Shown here: positions 1 through 16,569 of the stretch, piece by piece
Position numbering within the stretch: position 1 is the stretch's first letter
Layout: each line of letters opens with the position of its first letter
NCBI GenBank assembly: GCA_001784585.1
Contig: MFRN01000042.1
Span: forward strand, 1 to 38,993
DNA from: Candidatus Melainabacteria bacterium RIFCSPLOWO2_02_FULL_35_15
GTDB taxonomy: Bacteria; Cyanobacteriota; Vampirovibrionia; 2-02-FULL-35-15
Direction: 5' to 3'
Length of the DNA stretch: 38,993 nt
Notes under the pieces: generated by a model
Told to the model about the DNA's origin: nothing
What the model saw: the letters and a program-made list of their open reading frames with translations, nothing else
Databases searched by the model: none
Program-made: the position numbers and the translations under genes

Positions 1-3000
1 ATCTATCGTTACTAATGCCAGTCTAAACTTTTCAGGTTCATTTCTTGAACATAAGATTTCATTTTTTGTAAGTGTTACTTCATCCTTAGTATGCCACCTG
101 CCTTTTACTTCAATGAAATATAGTGAGCCTGTATTTGGATCTTTTGATTCAATATCATAACCAATTCCACGCTCTTTTGAAACATCTCTTGGTACTCTCC
201 CTATGGATTTCTCAATGCTAATCACAGCTTGCATCGCTGCTTTTTCAATTTTCTCTCTTTCTTCAAATGTGAGAACATCACCACTTATTCCTTCTTCACC
301 TTTCAGTTTTTTAAGAAGTCCTTTTGGAATAATAATTGCTCCACCTCTAATTTGTGGAGGTAAGGCACTGATTTCCCTTTCTCTTTCAAGCTCTTTTAAT
401 CTTCTTTGCAATCTTTCCTCTAATTCTTGAGCACGAGTTGCTGCATTTGAAGAACTTAACTTAGTGTTTCTTCCTGCTCTTTCCTGCATTTTTAATTCTT
501 CAGCTCTATGATCCCAAAAGTTTATTTCTCTTTTTAGTCTAGAAGTAACTTCAGCTTCAACTTTTTCAATTTCTTTTAGCCTACGATTTTTAACTTCTTC
601 TAAATGCTCTGGTACTAAATTTTCAATGGCATAAGAAATTATTTGGGCTTCAAGGTCTTTATTTAGCCAGTTAGTTTCTATTTCAGATTTTAGTATCTCA
701 AGCTCATTATCTTTGATAGGAGTGTAATCAAGGTAAGGTGCTGCACCTGCACTATTTAGCTTGCCATTTTGATCTATTTCTGTAAATTGAAACTTTTGAG
801 ATACTACCTGATGAATCCCATGTTTATTAGTTCTACCATCTTGAATAACCTGTTCAAGATAGAACAATACTCTACTTTCTTCACCATCATCATTCTCATC
901 AATTAGCACTGTACCTTTCTTAAGCAGGTCTCTATATCTTTCGAGGATTAAATCAATAGTGCAGTCAAGGAGTGGATGCCCAGGACAGATAAAAGCAGCA
1001 AGAGGAGGTTCTTTTATTTTGTCTTTTTCAAAACAAATCCTTTCATATCGTGATTGGATAGGATTTCCAATTCCTATTAGCCTGTCTCTTTCTTTAATTG
1101 AACCTGGTACATATGTTATTTCAAATCTATCTTCTTCTCGTGGATAACACTTCCCCCCTAGATGCTCAAAAGCTTTAAGAAAAAAAGATTGAATAAAGTG
1201 CGGTTGAAGTCTCCTAGCTTGAGCCCTTTCCATCTCTTCACGTATCTCTTGGACTTTAGTTTTATCAAGTGTATTCTTTACTAAAGCTTTTTCTTCTAGT
1301 AGTTCTACAAGTTTATCGCTGTTAACAGCATTTTCTATAATTTGTTCAAGTTTAGCTTTGACAGTAGGATCATCACCATATCTTATTGCTTGAATTAATA
1401 AATCTCTTAATGGATATTCATCAAATAAACGTCCAAGCACATTGTAGACTTTGCCGCCTAAACTTTCTCTTGCTTTTTCTAATTTTTTTAAAAGAAGATT
1501 GTATACTTCACCCTCTCTTGTTTCAGATGCAACCAAATTCCATAAATGACACACTTCTGTTTGACCGATTCTATGAATACGTCCAAATCTTTGTTCTAGC
1601 CTATTTGGATTCCATGGGAGATCATAATTAACCATTAAATGAGCTCTCTGTAAATTAACACCTTCACCAACAGCATCAGTTGCTACTAATATAAGTACAT
1701 TTTTATCATGGGTAAATCCTTCAATAAGTTTTTTGCGTTCTTCTCTTAAAAGCCCTCCATGTATGGCAATTACTGCTTCATTATTTCCTAGCCTGTTTTT
1801 TATTTTACTCTCCAAGTATTTCAAAGTATCTTTTGACTCTGTAAATATAACTAGCTTTCTCCTGTTTCCACTTTTATCAATCATTAGTGGATCATCTAGG
1901 ATGCTGTTTAATTGAAGCCACTTAGTATCTTTACCAGAATTACGCAATTTTCTTGCTCGTTCTTCAAGATTTTTAAGAGTTTCAATTTCTATTATTAATT
2001 CTTCAACATTTCTTGATGCGGTTGCTCTATCGAGAATTGTTTCTTCGACTTTATCAACTTCAGCTTCTGGAGCATCTTCTAAATCAGTTATATCTACTTC
2101 GTCTTGTTCATCTTGTTCAGAAGAAAGCACTTGTTCTCCTCTTTGTAATAACACCTCTTCATTAAGTCTTCTTTCAAGGCGTTCTCTTCTTCTAAGCAAT
2201 GATTGATATATAGCTTCTGGAGATGATGCTAGTCTTCTCTGTAATGATTGCATTGCAAAACCTACATTAACTCTTTGTGTTGGATTTTCATCTGAGAATC
2301 TTTCTACTCGATTCATTTCCTCTCTTACATAATTGGTAACTTCTGCATATAGAGCAGCTTCTTCATCAGAGAGCTTGTAGTTTAGAGTGTATGCTTTCCT
2401 TTCAGGGAATAGAGGCTTCCCGTCAAACTTAACTAATTCTTCTTTTACCATCCTTCGCATCAAGTCACTAACATCAGTTTTATGAACACCGTCTCTAAAC
2501 TTACCTTCAAATCTATCGCTGTCTATAAGCGCCATAAACAATTGAAAGTCTTCTTCTTTTCCGTTATGTGGGGTTGCAGTCATTAAAAGAAAATGTCGGC
2601 ATTTTTCCCCAAGAGTACGCCCAAGCTGGTATCTTTTTGTGAAATTGATTTCACCACTAAAGCAAGTGGCAGACATCTTATGGGCTTCATCACAAATAAT
2701 AAGATCCCAGTCCTTAGAGGATCTAAACTTTGCTTGAAGATGTTCATTTCTACTAAGCATATCTAGACGAGCTATCAAAAAGCCAGAATCTTGGAATGGA
2801 TTATCTAAAGAAGCTTCAATTTTCTCCTTTGTTAAAATATCAAATCTTAAACCAAACTTTTCATATAATTCATCTTGCCATTGTTCCACTAAATTGCCAG
2901 GTGCTACAATCAAACACCTTTCAACATCTCCTCGTATGAATAATTCTTTAATTAATAAACCAGCCATTATTGTTTTTCCTGCACCAGGATCATCTGCTAG

Positions 3001-3378
3001 TAAAAATCTAAGTGGTTGTCTGCTTAGCATGTTTTCATATACAGCAGTAATTTGATGAGGTAATGGTTCTACGAGGGATGTGTGTATAGCAAGGTAGTGA
3101 TCAAACAAATAAGCCAATTTAATTCTGTATGCTTCGGATACCAATCTAAATAAACTTCCATCCCCATCAAATGACCATGGAAGTCCTTTTTTGACCACTT
3201 CTAATGTTGGTTCATCACTTCTATAGACCAATTTGTCTTTAGGCCTACCAGTTGAATCTTCATAAACTACTTTTATAGCTTGATTACCAAACCATTCAAC
3301 ATTAACAACCTTAGCCGTACCATCACTAGATAGGCCTTTTACTATTGAGCCAGTTTTTAATTCTTCAAGCAGTGCCAC
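1..3378 (-). CDS. SNF2-type helicase with C-terminal DUF3883-like domain (3' end outside window)
   Basis: Minus-strand reading frame open for 1126 codons from a GTG at 3378, two codons after an in-frame TAA, to the window edge, where it is cut. It shows superfamily 2 helicase motifs: Walker A LADDPGAGKT near residue 125-135, a DEAHK box near 231, TATPHNG near 266, and motif VI QRFGRIHRIGQ near 600. After the helicase core come a long charged, coiled-coil-rich part (about 640-1040) and an end region with GYDIESKD and FIEVKGRW, which resembles DUF3883, a nuclease-fold-like domain. SNF2/RapA-like ATPases of this architecture are common in phage-defence and restriction islands, including the DrmD type of DISARM. 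The assignment to defence is inference from family and context. A divergent integrase lies 132 bases upstream. The domain calls are firm; the system it belongs to is not visible here. Confidence 0.93.
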   Translation of the reverse strand, partial: MALLEELKTGSIVKGLSSDGTAKVVNVEWFGNQAIKVVYEDSTGRPKDKLVYRSDEPTLEVVKKGLPWSFDGDGSLFRLVSEAYRIKLAYLFDHYLAIHTSLVEPLPHQITAVYENMLSRQPLRFLLADDPGAGKTIMAGLLIKELFIRGDVERCLIVAPGNLVEQWQDELYEKFGLRFDILTKEKIEASLDNPFQDSGFLIARLDMLSRNEHLQAKFRSSKDWDLIICDEAHKMSATCFSGEINFTKRYQLGRTLGEKCRHFLLMTATPHNGKEEDFQLFMALIDSDRFEGKFRDGVHKTDVSDLMRRMVKEELVKFDGKPLFPERKAYTLNYKLSDEEAALYAEVTNYVREEMNRVERFSDENPTQRVNVGFAMQSLQRRLASSPEAIYQSLLRRRERLERRLNEEVLLQRGEQVLSSEQDEQDEVDITDLEDAPEAEVDKVEETILDRATASRNVEELIIEIETLKNLEERARKLRNSGKDTKWLQLNSILDDPLMIDKSGNRRKLVIFTESKDTLKYLESKIKNRLGNNEAVIAIHGGLLREERKKLIEGFTHDKNVLILVATDAVGEGVNLQRAHLMVNYDLPWNPNRLEQRFGRIHRIGQTEVCHLWNLVASETREGEVYNLLLKKLEKARESLGGKVYNVLGRLFDEYPLRDLLIQAIRYGDDPTVKAKLEQIIENAVNSDKLVELLEEKALVKNTLDKTKVQEIREEMERAQARRLQPHFIQSFFLKAFEHLGGKCYPREEDRFEITYVPGSIKERDRLIGIGNPIQSRYERICFEKDKIKEPPLAAFICPGHPLLDCTIDLILERYRDLLKKGTVLIDENDDGEESRVLFYLEQVIQDGRTNKHGIHQVVSQKFQFTEIDQNGKLNSAGAAPYLDYTPIKDNELEILKSEIETNWLNKDLEAQIISYAIENLVPEHLEEVKNRRLKEIEKVEAEVTSRLKREINFWDHRAEELKMQERAGRNTKLSSSNAATRAQELEERLQRRLKELEREREISALPPQIRGGAIIIPKGLLKKLKGEEGISGDVLTFEEREKIEKAAMQAVISIEKSIGRVPRDVSKERGIGYDIESKDPNTGSLYFIEVKGRWHTKDEVTLTKNEILCSRNEPEKFRLALVTID

Positions 3379-4841: not shown

Positions 4842-6626
4842 TTATGACTTAGTGATTACTGGATCTTTATAATCAATTTTTTTATTAGCCTTCTTTATTA
4901 GATCTTTAAAATATTCTTCAAGAAACTGATATTGTTTATGACACCTATAATCTAGCCCAGCCTTTTCACAATATTTTGCAATAATTTCAAAGGGTTCATA
5001 TCCCTGAACCTTCTCCCCGATCTCCCTATCTTGATAGCCATAAGCCCCCTCATACATCCTCTGAGGACTTATATCATCTTTACCAAGCACTCTCATATAA
5101 AAACAGTTAATTGTAAAAAGCTCATTTAAGCACTCGATAAATAATTTTTTGTTTTCAGCAAGTAGAACTATTAACAATTCAAATTCATCAGGTGATATTA
5201 CAACAAAATTAATTTCTTCATCATTAATATTACCTATTTCTTTTCTTTTATCGCTTGACAAAAATTTCAAACAATCATTTTTCACATTTTCATATGGAGT
5301 ATTAATATCATATATATTTCTGTAAGTGACAATAAAAGGGAAAAATCTTTTTATGTGTTTAAACTCATTCTGAACTTTTGTTTCTGATAACTTAGTTTTT
5401 AGTATTTTTATATGCTTAAACACCTGCAAGACTATTTCTAAAAGTCTTTTTTGTATATTAGTCCACTCGTTTTGATTAGGGCTTTCTCTACCAGTTATCA
5501 CACCTTGCATTCTGGTTGTAAAATTCTTACACTCAAACATAACTGCAATATCATCAAATAATATAGAAATATCTGCAGGCCCATCCCACCAGCTACCTTT
5601 TATTTCTTCGTAATATTGTTTCTCATATAGAATTTGATATGTTTTATTTAAGAATCTATCTGTAACCTCCTTGCAGTAATTCTCAAAAGCTTTTCCAAAC
5701 CAATGAGTAAATTCCATTTTATCCTGATCAAACAATATTCTTGAAATAAATTCATTGTAGAAAAATTCAAACATCTTCGGAGATGGACACATTATTTGTT
5801 TTTTATCATAATAAAATAATGGCTTATGTCTAAGTACATTTGGCATTACTGTGTGCAATTTATAATAAAGTTCTTTGCCGTCTTGTCCATCAGAGTTAAG
5901 CTTGTCTATCTGTTCTTTCATTATCTGTTCATATAGGCATTTAAATTCAGTATGATTTAATGTAAGTAATTTAAAGAATTTATCATTAGTGTCTTTATCA
6001 ACAGAGACAACGTCAGAATCTAATAGATATATATCTTTATCCAATGTATTGTTTTTAAAAAGCATATTTAACTCGTAATCAATTCTCATGCATAATGTAA
6101 CAAATACATCATGTTCAATTCCATTTGTTGCAGTCTTAAATCGATCCTTATAATCATAGGATAAATCACCTTGTTCTAATATTTTTAACATTCTCATTAA
6201 TTTTTTGTAATGAGGGAAGTTATCATAGGGATATTGAGTGTTTTTAATTCGCCTGATCATAGCAGCTGTTCTTTGGTCATTTGTAAGGTTATCCTCATCT
6301 AATATGGGATCGATTTGTTCAATTAATAGACGTTGGAATTTATACAAATCAGGGAACTCCATAAGTTCTCTTTTATGCTCATTGCTTAAATAAATTGCTT
6401 GCTGAGACATATATGCTAATTCCCATTCTGGTAAAAACCCTGGACTAAAAAAAATATCATCAGGACTTAAACCAGTTTCTTGTATCGCAGACTTTGGATA
6501 GTACTTAGTTTTAGCGGCCCTGCTAAGCACTAAAAGTGTTCTTTGAAGATTTAAACGCTTCAATTGCCTATTAATTTCCTTAATTGCAGGGTCTTTTAAA
6601 TTTTCACAATCAAATAAGTAATTCAT
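4842..6626 (-). CDS. Unrecognised 594-aa protein with PD-(D/E)XK-like nuclease signature
   Basis: I do not recognise the family. The N-terminal 300 residues look largely helical and charged, with no helicase or NTPase motif. In the C-terminal half, GPADISILFDDIAVMFECKNF gives Asp352 followed by Glu365-Cys-Lys367 on two hydrophobic strands, the D...ExK arrangement of PD-(D/E)XK nucleases. An upstream helix (HWFGKAFENYCKEV, about 305-318) may supply the motif I glutamate. There is no signal peptide or membrane segment, so it is probably cytoplasmic. It is transcribed divergently from a 1245-aa protein that also ends in a nuclease-like domain, with 121 bases between the starts, and no clear Shine-Dalgarno precedes its ATG. 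A role as a defence nuclease is inference from motif and island context. Confidence 0.85.
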   Translation of the reverse strand: MNYLFDCENLKDPAIKEINRQLKRLNLQRTLLVLSRAAKTKYYPKSAIQETGLSPDDIFFSPGFLPEWELAYMSQQAIYLSNEHKRELMEFPDLYKFQRLLIEQIDPILDEDNLTNDQRTAAMIRRIKNTQYPYDNFPHYKKLMRMLKILEQGDLSYDYKDRFKTATNGIEHDVFVTLCMRIDYELNMLFKNNTLDKDIYLLDSDVVSVDKDTNDKFFKLLTLNHTEFKCLYEQIMKEQIDKLNSDGQDGKELYYKLHTVMPNVLRHKPLFYYDKKQIMCPSPKMFEFFYNEFISRILFDQDKMEFTHWFGKAFENYCKEVTDRFLNKTYQILYEKQYYEEIKGSWWDGPADISILFDDIAVMFECKNFTTRMQGVITGRESPNQNEWTNIQKRLLEIVLQVFKHIKILKTKLSETKVQNEFKHIKRFFPFIVTYRNIYDINTPYENVKNDCLKFLSSDKRKEIGNINDEEINFVVISPDEFELLIVLLAENKKLFIECLNELFTINCFYMRVLGKDDISPQRMYEGAYGYQDREIGEKVQGYEPFEIIAKYCEKAGLDYRCHKQYQFLEEYFKDLIKKANKKIDYKDPVITKS

Positions 6627-6747
6627 ATAAAACTTGCCAATTTAGAATTCTATCAATTTCCCTGGATTAATATTTATAAAAAGCTATACTTAATTATTAG
6701 TACAATTCTAGTAAAAAGTGGATTAACACTTAAATCTGTTTGCTAGC
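6627..6747. promoter_or_regulatory. Divergent control region between the two nuclease-like genes
   Basis: This 121-base AT-rich gap must carry the promoters for both the 594-aa and the 1245-aa genes. I see -10-like hexamers (for example TATACT and TACAAT in the right half) but no -35 at proper spacing. Neither start codon has a Shine-Dalgarno, which may mean leaderless or weak translation. Confidence 0.4.
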
Positions 6748-9700
6748 ATGGATTTACAAAAGACAATTAAATCATTAATTAAATATTCAATAGAGGAATT
6801 ATTAAACTGGATTCTTGCAACTAGTATTCATCCGTCCAATCAACGCTTTTGTTTTAATTTAGAACTTTTATTTAAACTCTTGATATCCATACAACCAATT
6901 GAATTTGAGAATCAAAATATAACAAGAGAAGATTTTATTAAAATAATCAGAGTTTTTTCTGAAGAAACTCAAAGTGTAAATCATATAGTTGATTCTCAAG
7001 ATTTCAAGAATCAATCAGAACTAGTACCAATTTTTGTTAATGGTAAAAAGTATTATTTCTTTTATGGGGCTATGAGTGCTCCCTACAAATTGGCTAAATG
7101 GTTCTATGAAAAGTACATAGACAATGAAGATTTAGAGAAACACAAGGAATTGAAAGATATATTAAATTGTTTTATTTTAAGCTTAGAGTACCAAACCAAG
7201 CTTCTGGAAGTAATTAAATCAATAAACGAATCTGGCAACATCTCTGAGAATGAAATGCATGTGCCATCTCAAAATTTCTACGACAGGTTATTTGCTGTAT
7301 TAAATACTAATAGATTCACTAGTATGCTACCGTCTGATATACAGAAATATAACTTGCTTCAAGGTGAAAACCATCTTTCTGATATATGGGCAGAATTGAA
7401 TGCTGACAATATTTTAAGCAGTATAGTAGTCCAGCTAAATAATGGTAAGCTATTTTTTACTTTGCCTCAGCTACATATTGAATCATTGCATATACTTGCT
7501 TGTAGGCTGATAAATGAATCGGAGAATAAAGAAGAATTAATGAAGGAACTAAATAATAATTTCTGCTATAAAGCTGAAATTAGCTCTATCCTTTTCTTTA
7601 ACAAGAATTTTCAAATAAAAAAAATCACTGATTTTAAGAGTCGTGAAATTAATATAACTGCGGATTTGGCATTTCTGGTTGATTCCAACAAGGTTTGTCT
7701 AATTAATGTTGTAGATAAAACTCAAAAAGATATTTTGGAAACAAAGAAAAATCAAATTGTGGCTTTCGAAGACGAGTTGAAGAAGGCAAAGAATATAAAT
7801 ATTTTTTTGGAAAATAAAAAAATAAACCAAGCAAATCCTACAAAGGTTGAAGATTTAGAGATATGGAAATTCTATATTCTTAATGATTTGGAACTTAATA
7901 AAGGACTTGAATTGCCTAGTGGCATTAACAGTACCTCTGTTTTTATTGAACATCAAAATTTTAAGATTTTAATGGAAAGATTAGATAGCCCTTTAACTTT
8001 AATTAAGTATTTTAAAACTGCTATTATGAGTGGTAAATTTAAAGGTTTTTTTGATGCTTTTGAACTTGATAGATTTGCATATTTTATAAGTAATGATCAA
8101 GAATATCCAGTTTCACTTATTCCAAAAATTAATCTTCAAGTACCACTAGGATATTGGGAAGATTTCAATCATAATGAGCAAATAGAAAAGTACAAAGATA
8201 ATATATATGAATTAATAGAAAGAGACTTTCCACATAGATTTGATACTGTTATGAAAAACCATGGTAATGAATATGGTGTAATGAAGAAAGTATTACAAGA
8301 CGGTGGCTATGTAATAAAAAATAATAATATGCTTATTTGGATAATGATGCCACTTGATAGATTTCAAAGAACTCCAGATGAAACACATTATTGTATAAGT
8401 TTTGTAGGCAAATTATACGCATACTATTTACAGAAGCTTCAACAAGAAATAAATTCTTTACTTACTAAATATAATTATGATTTAAACAAAAGCATTATTG
8501 TAGAAATGCTACCTACTTCAATAATAGAAAAAAATGATAGCTTTAAAGAACTTAGACATTTAATGAAAGAAATTAAAGATAGTGACCCCTTTATATATTT
8601 TGCTAGTTGCACTAATTCACCTCAAGAGCAATCGATCAATGTCAAAGCAATCTTTAGTATTGAAAAGCTTCAAACTGTTTTTAATGGGGGAAACAATAGT
8701 CCGGAAAAGCTTTGCATACAAGGGCTTATTGAAGAGATATTAAACGTTTTATGCAAGGATAAAACTAAAGCTAGTGAAGAAGCAAAAATATTTGTTGATA
8801 AGAATATTAAAGTTGGTAAAGGTAAGCATGTGTTAAAGGAGTTTAAGACCCATAATCCATCACTTGACAAATATCAAAAACCAATAGAAAGAAGCTTAAT
8901 AGATGTAAATAATTTAAATAGGGAGCTTTCCAAAAAGCTGATGGATCTAAAAATAAAACCAGGAGAATATAAGAATGATGAAGCTTTAAAAATAAATAAA
9001 GATATCTTTAATTTTTTATATGAGAAATTAAGGAATGAGATTGTGCAATATGACAAATCAATCTTATTTTTAGCAATGAAACAAGCTGAATTAGTGGAAG
9101 GAGCAAGGAAAGAAAATGATATGCAACTAGAGATAGATTCTTCTACTGAAATTGAATTTGACTTGGTTGAAACAACTATTAAAAAAAATACAGAAATTGC
9201 TAGGTTAGCTGAGCCTATAAAATATATTGTTTCTCTTATTATGAAAGAGGGAATTAAAGGAATAAAAAAAATTAATAGAGAGGGTTGGGGTGTGGCACTT
9301 GCGGCAGCAGACTTAATACGGGACACTTCAACTATACATGATTTCCTAAAATATAATCTTTCTGAATATACATTGAAAATTGATGAGCTTTATAGAGTGA
9401 TAGATCTAAAAGATGAAAAAATATTTGATATTTCAAAGTATTATAAAAAAGAAAGTAAAGAAATGATTCAAGTAGCCAAAGATAATTTTCGATATAGGTT
9501 TAGCGGAGCTAAGCTTGACAATGCAGAATTATCTGAGGAGCTGAAAGATGAAACTGATGCTGTATTCAATAATGAATATGGGTTTAAATTTAAAAACATG
9601 CTTAATCTTTTATGTTCCTTAGGTAATTCAGAGAATTTCACTGAAGATTATTTTCCAGCAACCCTAATAAAAAAAGAAGATATAAAAAAGGTATTAAATC

Positions 9701-10485
9701 GAAATAATTTTAAAATAGAAGAGAACGAACTGGATGCAATTTTAAAATTCTTATCAATTAACTTCAATTCATTTGATGATATTAATATATTATTGCTTTA
9801 TGAGCTTAATAGAAACAGTAAAAGAGTAAACCTTTCACCTTTAATAGAATTAGAAAAAGATACTTATATATATGGTCGTCAAATATGTTTAAAATCTGCA
9901 AATTTTTGGTTGCGGGAAATTTATCAAGGCAGTATTCCGTTTAGTGTTGGAAATATGCCTAAAGCAATAGAAGACCTAAGTGATAGAATACATAGGTTTT
10001 GGGATCTTGAACTTGAAGAAGATGCTTGTAAAAAACTGAAAGAAATTTTAGATGATAAAAATGTAGAATGTAGAATAAGTAACTTTAAAAGACTATCAAG
10101 TTCTTTTGTATCGAGGCCCCCTTGTGGAGAAATAGATGTTCTTGCAGTTAATAATAAAAATAAAACTATATATGTTTTTGACGCAAAAAATCTAACAAAA
10201 AAAATAAGGCCCTATGATTTACGACATGAATATAAAGAATTTTTTGAAGATAAAATAAAAGACGGGAAAATTACAAAACCATCATATTTAACAAAGTTAA
10301 GTAAAAAAGAAGAATTTGTAAAAGATAATTTGCCAGAAGTGTTAAATCATTTTGGTATTGTTGATACTAATGGTTGGTCTGTAAAAAAAGCATTTATTGT
10401 AAAAGAAAATTATACGTCTGCATTTTCAAAAGAACATACGATAAATTTCTTGTTAATTGAAGAGCTTAAAGAATATTTTAGTTAA
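6748..10485 (+). CDS. Unrecognised 1245-aa protein with C-terminal nuclease-like domain
   Basis: A large protein of unknown family, without signal peptide, transmembrane segment or Walker motifs that I can find. Most of it reads as alternating helices and short strands. The last 120 residues contain CGEIDVLAVNNKNKTIYVFDAKN: Glu-Ile-Asp near 1127-1129, then Asp1145-Ala-Lys1147 on a second strand, the layout of NERD/PD-(D/E)XK nucleases with Asp in place of the commoner Glu. A second, weaker two-strand pattern near 295-325 (ITADLAFLVDSNKVCLINVVD) has the same rhythm but lacks the lysine and may be a degenerate copy. It diverges from the 594-aa nuclease-like gene, and the two probably act together. 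The reading frame is intact and long, so it is a real gene. The defence function is inference. Confidence 0.88.
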   Translation: MDLQKTIKSLIKYSIEELLNWILATSIHPSNQRFCFNLELLFKLLISIQPIEFENQNITREDFIKIIRVFSEETQSVNHIVDSQDFKNQSELVPIFVNGKKYYFFYGAMSAPYKLAKWFYEKYIDNEDLEKHKELKDILNCFILSLEYQTKLLEVIKSINESGNISENEMHVPSQNFYDRLFAVLNTNRFTSMLPSDIQKYNLLQGENHLSDIWAELNADNILSSIVVQLNNGKLFFTLPQLHIESLHILACRLINESENKEELMKELNNNFCYKAEISSILFFNKNFQIKKITDFKSREINITADLAFLVDSNKVCLINVVDKTQKDILETKKNQIVAFEDELKKAKNINIFLENKKINQANPTKVEDLEIWKFYILNDLELNKGLELPSGINSTSVFIEHQNFKILMERLDSPLTLIKYFKTAIMSGKFKGFFDAFELDRFAYFISNDQEYPVSLIPKINLQVPLGYWEDFNHNEQIEKYKDNIYELIERDFPHRFDTVMKNHGNEYGVMKKVLQDGGYVIKNNNMLIWIMMPLDRFQRTPDETHYCISFVGKLYAYYLQKLQQEINSLLTKYNYDLNKSIIVEMLPTSIIEKNDSFKELRHLMKEIKDSDPFIYFASCTNSPQEQSINVKAIFSIEKLQTVFNGGNNSPEKLCIQGLIEEILNVLCKDKTKASEEAKIFVDKNIKVGKGKHVLKEFKTHNPSLDKYQKPIERSLIDVNNLNRELSKKLMDLKIKPGEYKNDEALKINKDIFNFLYEKLRNEIVQYDKSILFLAMKQAELVEGARKENDMQLEIDSSTEIEFDLVETTIKKNTEIARLAEPIKYIVSLIMKEGIKGIKKINREGWGVALAAADLIRDTSTIHDFLKYNLSEYTLKIDELYRVIDLKDEKIFDISKYYKKESKEMIQVAKDNFRYRFSGAKLDNAELSEELKDETDAVFNNEYGFKFKNMLNLLCSLGNSENFTEDYFPATLIKKEDIKKVLNRNNFKIEENELDAILKFLSINFNSFDDINILLLYELNRNSKRVNLSPLIELEKDTYIYGRQICLKSANFWLREIYQGSIPFSVGNMPKAIEDLSDRIHRFWDLELEEDACKKLKEILDDKNVECRISNFKRLSSSFVSRPPCGEIDVLAVNNKNKTIYVFDAKNLTKKIRPYDLRHEYKEFFEDKIKDGKITKPSYLTKLSKKEEFVKDNLPEVLNHFGIVDTNGWSVKKAFIVKENYTSAFSKEHTINFLLIEELKEYFS

Positions 10486-10700: not shown

Positions 10701-11066
10701 TTAATTATTCATGTCTAATTTTTTCAACTCAGTTAATTCCTCAACCAGTTTTAAAAGCTGAATAAAAAAATCAAACTTCATGGATATTAAATAAGGCATT
10801 GTGTTTCCAAACTTAGTATGTTTTCCTACTTGGCGTTTAGCTAAAAATAAATTACCTGCTGCTTGATGAAGTCCTTTGTAATCAAAATTAAATCCATTGC
10901 CACCTTTTGCTTTTACTTCTCCTTTTAACCATCCAAATGTTTTGGTTTTGATTCTAATATCATTGCCTTTAGAAGCAGGAGATAAATGAGATTCAAAGCC
11001 ATGTGCTCTGACTTGTTTCTTAAGATCAGCTTCAGCTCTTTTACCTTTTTGGTGCCTACTTCCCAT
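10701..11066 (-). CDS. Small resolvase-like PD-(D/E)XK nuclease
   Basis: A 121-aa protein resembling phage and archaeal Holliday-junction-resolvase-type nucleases. It opens with a basic helix carrying a glutamate (KGKRAEADLKKQVRAHG), followed by Gly-Asn-Asp36 and then Glu50-Val-Lys52 in KGEVKAKG, the classical E...D...ExK order of the fold. The length fits the small resolvase and VRR-NUC-like families. It is the last gene of a four-gene minus-strand operon, 10 bases after the sigma factor gene. In a mobile element it would resolve recombination or replication intermediates. I infer this role from the motif set; the exact family is uncertain. Confidence 0.75.
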   Translation of the reverse strand: MGSRHQKGKRAEADLKKQVRAHGFESHLSPASKGNDIRIKTKTFGWLKGEVKAKGGNGFNFDYKGLHQAAGNLFLAKRQVGKHTKFGNTMPYLISMKFDFFIQLLKLVEELTELKKLDMNN

Positions 11067-11076
11067 TCTTACTTAT

Positions 11077-11610
11077 TTATTCGTGAAATTTCTTTGTAAA
11101 TCTTTCCCTTGCTCTTGCAATTCGACTTTTTACTGTGCCTAGCTTAATTGCATACTTTTTAGCAATTTCTTCATATCTAAGATTATTAAGCTCTCTTGCT
11201 ATGAGCATATTTTTCCAAGGATCACCCATTTTATTTAAAACTTCTTGAATCTTAGTTTTTAATTCTTTGTTTTCACAAATTATTGAAGGATCTTTTTCTT
11301 CAACAAGCATGTTCTCTGGTTCAAAACATTCTTGAATTTCTGGATCAATTGCTATGCCCGAGAAGTTGATGCAATTAAGCCTTCTTTCTCTGAAATAATC
11401 AACCAAGTGATTAAAAACTAATCTTGATAGCCAAGATTTTATCGCTGTTGAATTTCTTATTGATTCGCAACCTTTAAATATTTTAATTAATATCTCTTGT
11501 TTAATATCTTGGAGATCTTGTAATTCTCGGACTCTTAGTAAGCATAAATCTATAAACTTGTCATGCCTAGGATAGATTTCATTAAACTTCATTGTGAGTA
11601 TTCCATACAT
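11077..11610 (-). CDS. Element-encoded RNA polymerase sigma factor (sigma-70/ECF-like)
   Basis: A 177-aa protein with the two domains of a small sigma factor. Region 2 (about 15-75) contains DIKQEILIKIFKG and SWLSRLVFNHLVDYFRERR. Region 4 (about 125-172) contains LRYEEIAKKYAIKLGTVKSRIARARERF, a helix-turn-helix of the kind that reads the -35 element. The gene begins 2 bases after the stop of the helicase loader, with AAAAGG 6 bases before ATG, so it is translationally linked. It would redirect host RNA polymerase to promoters of the element. A second ATG at codon 7 (MKFNEIY) is a possible start. The sigma-factor identity is good; targets are unknown. Confidence 0.85.
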   Translation of the reverse strand: MYGILTMKFNEIYPRHDKFIDLCLLRVRELQDLQDIKQEILIKIFKGCESIRNSTAIKSWLSRLVFNHLVDYFRERRLNCINFSGIAIDPEIQECFEPENMLVEEKDPSIICENKELKTKIQEVLNKMGDPWKNMLIARELNNLRYEEIAKKYAIKLGTVKSRIARARERFTKKFHE

Positions 11611-11612
11611 AA

Positions 11613-12386
11613 TTAACCTTTTTCAAGTCTGTGATTCAGGTTAGGCATTTTAATCACCTCGCACATTTGAATAATTCTTGAAACAATCCTTTCATCGAAA
11701 TGTTTGTCTAAATCATCAAGAGAGCAATTTGAGGTAATAATTGTTGGCAAATTACTTATGTACCTGTCATTGATTATTTTGTAGAAAACAGTAAAAGTCC
11801 AATCTGATCTCTTTTCAACTCCAATATCATCAAGGACTAAATAAGTAGCACTGGTATATTTCTCAATGATGTCTAATTCTGTAATTTCTTGTGAGTTAAA
11901 AGCTCTTTTGATTTCTAAGAGTAAATCTATAGTCTGAATAAACTTTACTGAACCTAGACTTTCAGTAATGATTTTACTCGTAATTGCACATGCTAAGTGA
12001 GTTTTACCAGAACCAGGAGAGCCGTAAAGAAACAATCCTTTTCTTTGATTTTGATTCTTTAGAACTTTGGATACAAGATCAAGCTGTCTCTCATACTTAT
12101 CAGCTTTAAAGTTTGTAAAGGTGTAGAAACTCAGATTACCTTTTAACCCAGCGCTTTGAATTTCTCGCTGAATACGTTTTATTTCATTCTCTTGATGGAG
12201 TTTTTGTTGTTGTTTAGTCTCACAGTGGTTACAAAAGGTCTTCCAACCCACAAAGTCTATAAAAACAGATTTGCATTTATTTCTACAATCTTTGCAGATT
12301 ACATCAGCAGGTTTATTGTTTTTCAGCTCTGTTTGCTTTTCTCTTGCTTTTTCTATGACATTTTTTAAACTCATTGGTAATGGCAT
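11613..12386 (-). CDS. DnaC/IstB-like helicase-loader ATPase with N-terminal zinc finger
   Basis: A 257-aa AAA+ protein of the DnaC/DnaI/IstB group. Walker A is GSPGSGKT at 122-129, Walker B VLDDIG at 184-189, sensor 1 TIITSN at 215-220, and an arginine-finger region is in DERIVSR near 231-237. N-terminal Cys31, Cys34, Cys52 and Cys55 (CKDC...CNHC) form a probable zinc ribbon, as in DnaI-type primosomal proteins. No transposase of the IS21 type is adjacent. The partner instead is the small protein encoded 4 bases upstream, which fits a plasmid/phage replication-initiation pair rather than an insertion sequence. The start is supported by GGAG before ATG. Confidence 0.9.
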   Translation of the reverse strand: MPLPMSLKNVIEKAREKQTELKNNKPADVICKDCRNKCKSVFIDFVGWKTFCNHCETKQQQKLHQENEIKRIQREIQSAGLKGNLSFYTFTNFKADKYERQLDLVSKVLKNQNQRKGLFLYGSPGSGKTHLACAITSKIITESLGSVKFIQTIDLLLEIKRAFNSQEITELDIIEKYTSATYLVLDDIGVEKRSDWTFTVFYKIINDRYISNLPTIITSNCSLDDLDKHFDERIVSRIIQMCEVIKMPNLNHRLEKG

Positions 12387-12390
12387 TTTT

Positions 12391-12741
12391 TTAATCTCCT
12401 GTTATTTTCACGCTTGCATATTTACTAGGCTTGTTTTCAACCATTTCTGATTTAGAAACAGTTGGACCTACTCTTGAATTTGTCTCAAGCTTTTTAAGTT
12501 GACCTGTGTGTGTATCCCAGTGCCGCTTTAATTCAGATGGTTTTGTTATTGTTGTACAAAAAGGTTGACCGTAAGTCTTTTCGAGATTTTTAATTTTTTC
12601 CTCAAGGGCTTTTTTACCATGTCTATCTAATAAAACTTTTAATGCTTTTCTCTCTGTAGTGTTAGGAAAAACATCTTGTAGGTTTTGATTTACTGGCTTA
12701 AATAAAGGGAATGAAGAAGTTTTAGCTTCAATCATTCCCAT
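12391..12741 (-). CDS. Small basic protein, first gene of the replication operon; start overlaps att copy
   Basis: A 116-aa protein I do not recognise. It is rich in Lys and Thr, with a helical central part (ERKALKVLLDRHGKKALEEKIKNLEKTYG) and a disordered tail. Its position before a DnaC-like loader suggests a replication initiator or loader-accessory protein, by inference only. The ATG at 12741 is one base beyond the CCA of the duplicated tRNA-His 3' end. No Shine-Dalgarno precedes it, only att sequence, and the frame stays open upstream through the whole att repeat without another ATG, GTG or TTG. In the original insertion, without the 1.1-kb block, the operon would directly follow the tRNA in the same direction and could be read from its promoter. 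Confidence 0.7.
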   Translation of the reverse strand: MGMIEAKTSSFPLFKPVNQNLQDVFPNTTERKALKVLLDRHGKKALEEKIKNLEKTYGQPFCTTITKPSELKRHWDTHTGQLKKLETNSRVGPTVSKSEMVENKPSKYASVKITGD

Positions 12742-12742
12742 C

Positions 12743-12770
12743 TGGGGCAGGTGACGGGATTCGAACCCGC
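12743..12770 (-). repeat. att copy: displaced 3' end of tRNA-His
   Basis: These 28 bases match the T-arm, 3' acceptor strand and CCA of tRNA-His at 13865-13892 in direct orientation, with a single difference in the T loop (TTCGAAT here, TTCAAAT in the intact gene). Similarity stops abruptly beyond 12770. This is the classic footprint left when a tyrosine recombinase inserts an element into a tRNA 3' end. It may preserve the pre-integration host sequence. Confidence 0.85.
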
Positions 12771-12798
12771 ATATTACATTAATAAGGTTAAAAGGATA

Positions 12799-12854: not shown

Positions 12855-12881
12855 TCAGGAAAATTGGGTGTAAATATTAAC

Positions 12882-13862
12882 ATGAACAAGAACACATCAG
12901 CAAAAATAATTGAATACATAGCATCTAAAGGGCAAGTAGAAGGGAAAGAGCTTTTTGGTTATTTTGAACTTTCAGACAGAGCTATAAGAAAACAGCTTAA
13001 AAAACTTTTTGAAACTGGTGTTTTGATTAAAGCAGGGAAACCTCCAAAAGTTTTTTACTCATTAAAAGAAAAAGAATCTAAAGAAGAAAATATAGTAACG
13101 ATTGAACCATCTCAGGAAAAAATTATCAATAACAAATTCTTAATAATCACACCTTCTGGAGAAGAAAAAGAAGGTATAGAAGGATTTAAGTATTGGTGTA
13201 AAAGATTTAAATTGCCAATTGAAAAAACTGCTCAGGAATATATTCAAACATTAAAAAAATATGACTCTTATAAAAAAGACGGACTTATTAATGGATTATA
13301 TAAATTTAAGAGTACTTTTAAAGAGACGTTTTTAGATGAAATTTATTACCTTGATTTTTATAGTATAGAAAGATTTGGAAAGACAAAACTCGGTCAATTC
13401 TTGCTATATGCAAAACAAAGTCAGAACAGAGCTTATATAAAAAAATTGATTGGTCAAATTAAGCCAGAGATTGAGCATACGATTAAAAAATTTAAGATAG
13501 ATGGTGTAGGGGTAATGCCTCCGACAGTAAAAAGAGAAGTTCAGATAATGAAAGAACTTGAAAAAGCTATAAAGCCTAACCACAAATTAATTTTAATTAC
13601 AAAAATTAAAACTACCATTACTGTTCCGCAAAAGACATTAAGTAAACTTGAAGATCGTATAGAAAATGCCAGAAGCACGATAGTAGTAAACGAGAGAGGA
13701 GTTTATAAAAATATTATCTTGGTTGATGATGCAGTAGGCTCGGGTGCTACATTAAATGAGACTGCCCGAAAAATAAGAGAAAGAAAGATCTGCAAAGGAA
13801 AAATTATAGGGCTTGCAATTGTCGGCAGTTTTAAAGGGTTTGATGTAATTAGCGAGGTTTAA
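12882..13862 (+). CDS. Winged-helix/ComF-like phosphoribosyltransferase fusion
   Basis: A 326-aa protein from the ATG at 12882. A TTG at 12864 would add six residues, but its AGGA is only 3 bases away, so the start is uncertain. Residues 1-60 form a winged helix (SDRAIRKQLKKLFETGVLIKAGKPPKVFYSL). The C-terminal 130 residues are a type I phosphoribosyltransferase. They include QKTLSKLEDRIENAR, as in ComF-type proteins, and a PRPP loop ILVDDAVGSGATL with both aspartates (282 and 283). The enzyme would bind PRPP or a nucleotide and the winged helix DNA, suggesting a metabolite-sensing regulator. It lies alone between the two tRNA-His repeats and stops 2 bases from the tRNA 3' end. The domains are clear; substrate and role are not. 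Confidence 0.88.
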   Translation: MNKNTSAKIIEYIASKGQVEGKELFGYFELSDRAIRKQLKKLFETGVLIKAGKPPKVFYSLKEKESKEENIVTIEPSQEKIINNKFLIITPSGEEKEGIEGFKYWCKRFKLPIEKTAQEYIQTLKKYDSYKKDGLINGLYKFKSTFKETFLDEIYYLDFYSIERFGKTKLGQFLLYAKQSQNRAYIKKLIGQIKPEIEHTIKKFKIDGVGVMPPTVKREVQIMKELEKAIKPNHKLILITKIKTTITVPQKTLSKLEDRIENARSTIVVNERGVYKNIILVDDAVGSGATLNETARKIRERKICKGKIIGLAIVGSFKGFDVISEV

Positions 13863-13864
13863 CT

Positions 13865-13892
13865 TGGGGCAGGTGACGGGATTTGAACCCGC
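13865..13892 (-). repeat. att copy inside the intact tRNA-His 3' end
   Basis: Partner of the repeat at 12743-12770 (27 of 28 bases identical). Together they bound a 1.1-kb block with a single gene. Confidence 0.85.
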
Positions 13893-13942
13893 GAATACCG
13901 GGACCACAACCCGGGGCCTTAGGCCACTTGGCGACACCTGCC
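13865..13942 (-). tRNA. tRNA-His (anticodon GTG), integration target
   Basis: A 78-base gene with the extra 5' G(-1) at 13942 opposite discriminator C73, a hallmark of tRNA-His. The acceptor stem is GCAGGTG/CACCTGC. The anticodon stem CCGGG/CCCGG holds the loop TTGTGGT (anticodon GTG), and the T loop is TTCAAAT. CCA is encoded (13865-13867). The 3' 28 bases are duplicated at 12743, so this is the reconstituted copy after integration and its 3' end is probably element-derived. Upstream, a TATAAT on the minus strand (14011-14016) is a possible -10, but it is 68 bases away. Confidence 0.97.
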
Positions 13943-15909: not shown

Positions 15910-16569
15910 ATGACAAAGACAGAACCTAATATAGAAAAAATATATGAAGAAAATCTCAGGTTTTGGGATGAGGCCTGGCAGAGAGTTGCAAAGCCGCATA
16001 AAGAGTTACCTAAGCTTCCATATATTCACGAGATAACAAGAAAGCTAAAAAAGTTCAGGGTAAAAAGAGTTCTTGATCTTGGGTGCGGTTCAGGCTGGTT
16101 ATCTGTTTTTATGTCTAAATATGGCTTTGAAGTTACTGGTGTTGATACTTCAAGGTCAGCCATTGCTTTGGGTACAGCATGGGCAGGTGAAGATAATGCA
16201 AATGTAGCTTTATTAGCAGGTGATTTATTAAACCTTCCTTTTGGTGATGGTTCATTTGATGCTGTAATTTGTAATTCTGTTCTGGAACATTTCAGGCTTG
16301 ATCAGGCAAAAATTATTTTTAATAAGGTTCATAAAATACTTACAACCGGTGGATTTTTCTTCGGGTGTTTTGATCAGGTTGGTTCCGGAAAAGGCGAATA
16401 TTTTGAGCTCTTAGATCATACTCATGTTTACACAGATGAAATGCGAAAAGGCATGATGCTTAGAAATTATTCTGATCAGGAACTGAAAGAACTCTTAGCT
16501 AATTTTGATCTTTTATCTTTTGACAAAAATAATTACGGAAGCCGGTTGGTTTGGGCGAAGAAGAGGTAA
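15910..16569 (+). CDS. Class I SAM-dependent methyltransferase
   Basis: A 219-aa protein with the Rossmann methyltransferase core: motif I VLDLGCGSGWLS (about 55-66), motif II VTGVDTS, an acidic motif around LAGDLLNLPFGDGSFDAVICNSVLEHF, and a post-motif G-F-F-F-G-C-F strand. This UbiE/Methyltransf_11-like type methylates small molecules, lipids or sugars; the substrate cannot be told. Its stop lies 14 bases before the likely start of the next gene, which suggests an operon with the unrecognised protein at 16584. Confidence 0.88.
   Translation: MTKTEPNIEKIYEENLRFWDEAWQRVAKPHKELPKLPYIHEITRKLKKFRVKRVLDLGCGSGWLSVFMSKYGFEVTGVDTSRSAIALGTAWAGEDNANVALLAGDLLNLPFGDGSFDAVICNSVLEHFRLDQAKIIFNKVHKILTTGGFFFGCFDQVGSGKGEYFELLDHTHVYTDEMRKGMMLRNYSDQELKELLANFDLLSFDKNNYGSRLVWAKKR

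What the first reader, a model, noticed from the sequence alone, without database searches (positions are those of the whole stretch)
4842..10485. Divergent pair of large nuclease-like proteins: candidate undescribed defence module
Seen: two long intact genes (594 and 1245 aa) start 121 bases apart on opposite strands. Each carries a D...(E/D)xK two-strand signature toward its C-terminus (Asp352/Glu365-Cys-Lys367; Asp1129/Asp1145-Ala-Lys1147). Known: PD-(D/E)XK nucleases are frequent effectors in defence islands. Inference: I recognise neither protein. Their size, the shared control region and neighbouring DUF3883 helicase, integrase and att repeat suggest a two-component anti-phage or anti-plasmid system.
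Basis: partly seen in the sequence, partly recalled or inferred. Interest (0 to 1): 0.75.

Follow-up and report, generated by a model that had tools for sequence, protein, structure and literature searches.

The report
Two unrelated nuclease-type defence genes, side by side
Two large bacterial genes that sit head to head both look like DNA-cutting anti-virus proteins, but their relatives elsewhere live apart, so they are most likely two separate defences carried on the same mobile stretch of DNA rather than one new two-part system.

Summary
In detail: intact genes A (4842-6626, -, 594 aa) and B (6748-10485, +, 1245 aa) start 121 bases apart, and each carries a PD-(D/E)XK-type motif conserved in relatives. 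The first acid of B is Asp1130, not Asp1129. A is a divergent homologue of the published single-gene anti-phage protein GapS1 (NCBIfam NF047931, E 1.5e-18, below its membership cut-off). B matched no library as a whole, but it belongs to a sparse, unnamed family of about 1,240-aa proteins: two gut-melainabacterial genes (21% identity end to end) and a Lactococcus plasmid gene interrupted by IS981. One relative lies 7 bp behind a complete Gabija system, another near a PADLOC candidate. The family's C-terminal nuclease weakly resembles Upx, which is of similar length. No B relative lies beside the A relatives in 12 other Cyanobacteriota genomes, and no A relative beside the three B relatives. 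The two genes are therefore most likely independent nuclease effectors on a mobile defence island (HmaA helicase, integrase, phage-like replication genes) near the tRNA-His of a Caenarcaniphilales bacterium. The two-component claim is not supported; B's family is the new part. All functions are inferred, and the structure predictions were too poor to use.

The parts
4842..6626 (-). Gene A, 594 aa: divergent GapS1-like PD-(D/E)XK nuclease, candidate single-gene anti-phage effector
   Evidence: NCBIfam NF047931 E 1.5e-18 over residues 111-502 (66.9 bits, curated cut-off 320); NERD weak; family alignment
5526..5573 (-). A catalytic motif Asp352 ... Glu365-Cys-Lys367
   Evidence: Letters checked; D...(E/D)xK conserved in GapS1-like relatives
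6627..6747 (.). 121-bp intergenic region between the divergent starts; no promoter-like consensus match in it
6748..10485 (+). Gene B, 1245 aa: member of an unnamed family of ~1240-aa proteins with C-terminal PD-(D/E)XK nuclease, candidate stand-alone defence effector
   Evidence: Full-length relatives L078:9535-13242(-) and L079:8994-12743(-)
10135..10188 (+). B catalytic motif Asp1130 ... Asp1145-Ala-Lys1147
   Evidence: DUF234/NERD weak hits
1..3378 (-). HmaA-type SNF2 helicase with NOV_C domain (neighbour; runs off the contig)
   Evidence: PADLOC PDLC00659 1571 bits; Pfam; HmaB not found in the genome
3511..4629 (+). Tyrosine integrase with N-terminal HTH_17 (mobility gene of the island)
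   Evidence: Pfam PF00589 E 8e-30
10701..12741 (-). Phage-like replication block: RusA-like resolvase, ECF sigma factor, DnaC-like helicase loader, 116-aa ORF
   Evidence: PHROGs
12743..12770 (.). att-like copy of the tRNA-His 3' end
   Evidence: 28 nt, 96%; only two copies in the genome; same junction next to tRNA-His in G238
12864..13862 (+). HTH-phosphoribosyltransferase gene between the two repeats (PsyrT/ShosT-like)
   Evidence: PADLOC PsyrT E 3e-15; 80% identical copy beside tRNA-His in G104
13865..13941 (-). tRNA-His(GTG), integration hotspot; its 3' end is the second repeat copy
   Evidence: ARAGORN

Best explanation
A and B are two independent, single-gene anti-phage effectors that happen to be neighbours in a mobile defence island near the tRNA-His of a Caenarcaniphilales (Melainabacteria) bacterium. 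Each has a long N-terminal part, probably mostly helical, that senses infection or gates the enzyme, and a PD-(D/E)XK nuclease past the middle (A) or at the C-terminus (B). A is a divergent GapS1-type protein: on sensing a phage component it would switch on its nuclease, cut nucleic acid and stop growth. B, like the similarly sized Upx, would be a one-protein nuclease defence held inactive by its ~1100-residue N-terminal part until infection. Shown: genes, motifs, homology, lack of conserved pairing in the sample, island context. Inferred: nuclease activity, trigger, abortive outcome.
For: A: GapS1 family match E 1.5e-18; 12 further Cyanobacteriota genomes hold GapS1-family matches; catalytic motif conserved in the relatives; no B relative within the ~5-8 kb taken around them (less where contigs end). 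B: full-length collinear relatives of 1235 and 1249 aa, hhalign probability 94% and E 1e-7 over 701-1244, 18-20 standard deviations above shuffles; one relative 7 bp behind GajB and GajA, another near PDC-M11A and an integrase; a relative on a mobilizable Lactococcus plasmid. No GapS1-family match in the two genomes holding B relatives. Island: HmaA, integrase, replication genes; B absent from the 10 other family members searched; A and B G+C 0.28-0.30 against 0.36 for the contig beyond position 14000.
Against: No activity has been measured. A scores far below the GapS1 curated cut-off (66.9 of 320 bits). Only three B relatives were found, at 20-23% identity, so co-occurrence statistics are thin; the N-terminal half of B is only weakly alignable (z 5.4). 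Structure predictions failed (mean pLDDT 35 and 39). The genes share a 121-bp divergent control region, which a functional pair would also show.
Confidence: 0.68

Rival explanations
1. A and B form one two-component defence system, for example a nuclease plus a regulator or co-nuclease switched from the shared 121-bp region.
For: Divergent starts 121 bp apart and both proteins nuclease-like.
Against: No B relative beside the A relatives and no A relative beside the B relatives; no promoter-like signal above chance in the shared region; A's known relative GapS1 is a single-gene system (own knowledge).
Confidence: 0.12
2. The two genes are accessory or maintenance genes of the mobile element (replication, recombination or competition between elements) and not anti-phage defence.
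For: They sit between an integrase and phage-like replication genes; PD-(D/E)XK folds are also used in repair and recombination (own knowledge).
Against: A's closest annotated family is anti-phage; B relatives sit next to Gabija and near a PADLOC candidate in other settings.
Confidence: 0.12
3. B is simply a far-diverged Upx protein (compatible with the best explanation), so nothing in the locus is outside known systems.
For: An L079 relative hits the Upx profile at the nuclease (E 0.00088); lengths match (1245 against 1271 positions); the nuclease sits at the same relative place.
Against: B itself has no PADLOC hit; the match is limited to the nuclease strands, which many families share; no Upx sequence could be aligned end to end here.
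Confidence: 0.3

Closest known systems
GapS1 / GAPS1 (NCBIfam NF047931; Mahata et al. 2024, cited as ref. 79 in PMC12774648)
   Same: Homologous over residues 111-502 of A; single gene (own knowledge); PD-(D/E)XK-type motif in the GapS1-like relatives aligned here
   Different: Far below the curated cut-off; about 30% identity even to the nearest relative; longer (594 aa against 455 profile positions)
Upx (PADLOC PDLC02221; listed under nucleic acid degradation in PMC10855318)
   Same: Very large single protein (1271 positions) with a C-terminal nuclease motif; weak profile match of B's relatives at that motif
   Different: No detectable similarity outside the nuclease; B itself does not match
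NERD (PF08378) and DUF234 (PF03008) nuclease-like domains
   Same: Weak matches over the D...(D/E)xK stretch: NERD in both proteins, DUF234 in B
   Different: Below gathering scores; the rest of both proteins is unrelated
Gabija (GajA/GajB)
   Same: A B relative sits 7 bp downstream of GajB in G178
   Different: B has no detectable OLD/TOPRIM or UvrD domain; no Gabija gene was noticed beside A and B

Membership tests
GapS1 family (NF047931) - A | Significant profile homology over most of the model | tested here: met
   E 1.5e-18, profile positions 77-437 of 455
GapS1 family (NF047931) - A | Score above the curated cut-off (320 bits) | tested here: not met
   66.9 bits; none of 386 Cyanobacteriota genomes reaches the cut-off
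GapS1 family (NF047931) - A | Conserved PD-(D/E)XK residues | tested here: met
   D352/E365/K367 and relatives
GapS1 family (NF047931) - A | Protects against phage as a single gene | not testable with these tools
   Needs a plating assay
Upx - B | Whole-protein profile match | tested here: not met
   No PADLOC hit for B; relatives match only at the nuclease
Upx - B | ~1270-aa single protein with C-terminal PD-(D/E)XK nuclease | tested here: met
   1245 aa, D1130...K1147
Upx - B | Homology outside the nuclease | tested here: inconclusive
   No Upx sequences could be fetched for a profile-profile test
Unnamed B family (defined here) | End-to-end collinear homology with the L078 and L079 proteins | tested here: met
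   Local alignment spans B 3-1245, z 18-20; hhalign prob 94%, E 1e-7 over 701-1244; N-terminal half alone weak (z 5.4)
PD-(D/E)XK nuclease superfamily - A and B | Alpha-beta core fold around the motif | tested here: inconclusive
   AlphaFold2 models of pLDDT 35 and 39; the order of helices and strands in B is compatible but not reliable
Conserved two-component system A+B | Recurrent head-to-head pairing in unrelated genomes | tested here: not met
   No pairing at the 13 A-relative places examined nor at the three B-relative places
Hma system (neighbour) | HmaA together with HmaB in the genome | tested here: not met
   HmaA present, HmaB not found; HmaC not searched; the contig ends inside HmaA

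The most novel reading that the evidence does not exclude
B represents an undescribed family of ~1240-aa single-protein nuclease defences, found so far in Melainabacteria and on a lactococcal plasmid, that works as a self-contained sensor plus nuclease and is sometimes acquired as an add-on to Gabija.
Probability: 0.4. Interest if true: 0.55.

Novelty: new variant of a known kind. Interest (0 to 1): 0.42.

Why it matters
If right, B's family adds one more giant stand-alone nuclease to the list of candidate anti-phage genes, in Melainabacteria and on a lactococcal plasmid. Its placement directly behind Gabija in one genome makes a cooperation or add-on hypothesis testable. A extends GapS1-like proteins to non-photosynthetic relatives of cyanobacteria. 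The negative result matters too: head-to-head neighbours in an island should not be read as one system without testing whether they pair elsewhere.

Tried and rejected
Searches with full-length B or its parts in genome contigs, viral contigs, phages, plasmids and 292 Cyanobacteriota genomes found no convincing relative; relatives appeared only through the Upx profile. The C-terminal search and the class search gave one marginal match (G232, a 569-aa protein), judged spurious. Weak plasmid matches of B's C-terminus to three proteins share GEID...(E/D)xKN (one has ECKN, one EAKN, one EAKN) and were kept only as leads. Viral-contig scans with the family alignments found nothing. A genome of another phylum could not be used as a search centre. 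AlphaFold2 on A (two sequences) and on B's last 261 residues gave pLDDT 35 and 39; fold searches were therefore not run. A and B are not homologous to each other. The GapS1 paper itself is not in the library. Rejected: the repeat as the boundary of an A/B element, since in this contig it encloses only the PRTase gene.

Full report
OBSERVATION. The two genes are as described: A at 4842-6626 (-, 594 aa) and B at 6748-10485 (+, 1245 aa), both intact, 121 bases between start codons. A's Asp352/Glu365-Cys-Lys367 is correct; B's first acid is Asp1130 (residue 1129 is Ile), with Asp1145-Ala-Lys1147.

HOST. The nearest relative of A (L008/G234, 30% identity) comes from a Candidatus Caenarcanales MAG in the same family as the window's genome, so the window belongs to the Caenarcaniphilales, non-photosynthetic relatives of cyanobacteria. 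B was found in none of the 10 other genomes of that family, and a clear relative of A only in G234. Both genes are therefore accessory.

GENE A. NCBIfam gives GapS1 family, E 1.5e-18, over residues 111-502, but only 66.9 bits against a cut-off of 320. The same family matches 13 of 386 Cyanobacteriota genomes, the window's included, always below the cut-off. In an alignment of these relatives the (P/A)D ... (E/D)xK motif recurs, with a conserved Glu before it and Gln after it, and Pfam NERD aligns weakly to the same stretch. I therefore treat A as a divergent GapS1-type nuclease, a homologue but not a member by the curated threshold. From memory, and not readable here, the GAPS1 paper (Mahata et al. 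2024; cited for the GAPS1 system in PMC12774648) reports that GAPS1 is triggered by a phage capsid protein and induces dormancy. That mechanism is transferred to A by inference only.

GENE B. Searches with B itself found no relative. Weak plasmid hits to its C-terminus led, through one that matched PADLOC Upx, to a search of 357 genomes with the Upx profile. It rang weakly in two open frames of about 1250 aa in other Melainabacteria, G240 and G178. These proteins, of 1235 and 1249 aa, align with B from end to end at 20-23% identity. The score is 18-20 standard deviations above shuffled controls, mostly carried by the C-terminal half; the N-terminal half alone is weak at z 5.4. Profile comparison gives 94% probability, E 1.1e-7, collinear over 701-1244. 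A Lactococcus plasmid (pFI430) holds a further relative, split by IS981 into a 218-aa and an 892-aa reading frame. G1127, D1130 and K1147 are invariant in the three full-length proteins. B is thus a member of a small, unnamed family of very large proteins with a C-terminal PD-(D/E)XK nuclease. It resembles Upx in size and layout, but similarity was seen only at the nuclease.

IS IT A PAIR? In the regions around the A relatives no B relative was found, by phmmer with B or by a profile of the B family. Around the three B relatives no A relative was found, and G178 and G240 have no GapS1-family match anywhere. One B relative is 7 bp behind GajB and in series with GajA (E 1.9e-169 and 1.6e-212); another is near an integrase and a PDC-M11A candidate. 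Both families thus travel independently through defence-type neighbourhoods. The sample is small (12 further A genomes, three B relatives), so recurrence in rarer lineages is not excluded.

SURROUNDINGS. To the left lie an HmaA-type helicase cut by the contig end (1571 bits; HmaB absent) and a tyrosine integrase. To the right are a RusA-like resolvase, an ECF sigma factor, a DnaC-like loader and a 116-aa ORF. The repeat 12743-12770/13865-13892 copies the tRNA-His 3' end and occurs only there in the genome. In G238 the sequence corresponding to window 12702-12774 lies directly across the tRNA-His 3' end, and the PRTase gene between the copies has an 80% counterpart at the same place in G104. 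So the visible repeat pair delimits the PRTase segment; the outer end of any element that carries A and B is not in this contig. G234 has other element-like genes at its tRNA-His, which marks the site as a hotspot.

MECHANISM. Most likely each protein is a sensor-gated nuclease: the large N-terminal part restrains the nuclease until infection, and cleavage of nucleic acid then stops phage or cell. The nuclease chemistry follows from the conserved residues; gating, trigger and outcome are inference. AlphaFold2 models were too poor to use.

VERDICT. The single two-component system is not supported. A is a divergent relative of a known kind; B is the more original part, an undescribed family with a plausible but untested defence role.

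Noticed in passing
window 1-3378 (-): HmaA-type helicase (PADLOC 1571 bits) without a detectable HmaB anywhere in the genome; a solitary or broken Hma, or partners lost at the contig end.
   Followed up: partly
window 12864-13862 (+): HTH-phosphoribosyltransferase gene resembling PsyrT/ShosT proteins, between two copies of the tRNA-His 3' end, with an 80% counterpart at the same site in a second genome of the genus (L063).
   Followed up: partly
L079:8994-16585: A B-family gene directly downstream (7 bp) of a complete Gabija pair in a Melainabacteria genome; possibly an add-on to Gabija.
   Followed up: partly
L080:2845-7575: Lactococcus plasmid pFI430 carries a B-family gene interrupted by IS981.
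   Followed up: partly
L068:4561-9222: Different element-like genes (by eye, a serine recombinase and a primase-like protein) sit at the tRNA-His of G234, so this tRNA looks like an integration hotspot in the family.
   Followed up: no
window 11077-11610 (-): An ECF-type sigma factor within the phage-like replication block, next to a DnaC-like helicase loader; unusual company.
   Followed up: no
window 15910-16569 (+): PADLOC mad2 match (E 2.6e-23) is probably a false lead: the gene is kept beside ilvD in several family genomes examined and looks like a housekeeping methyltransferase.
   Followed up: partly
L008:7190-7945 (-): 251-aa protein with a zinc-ribbon-like start and no family matches, divergently next to the A relative in G234.
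   Followed up: no
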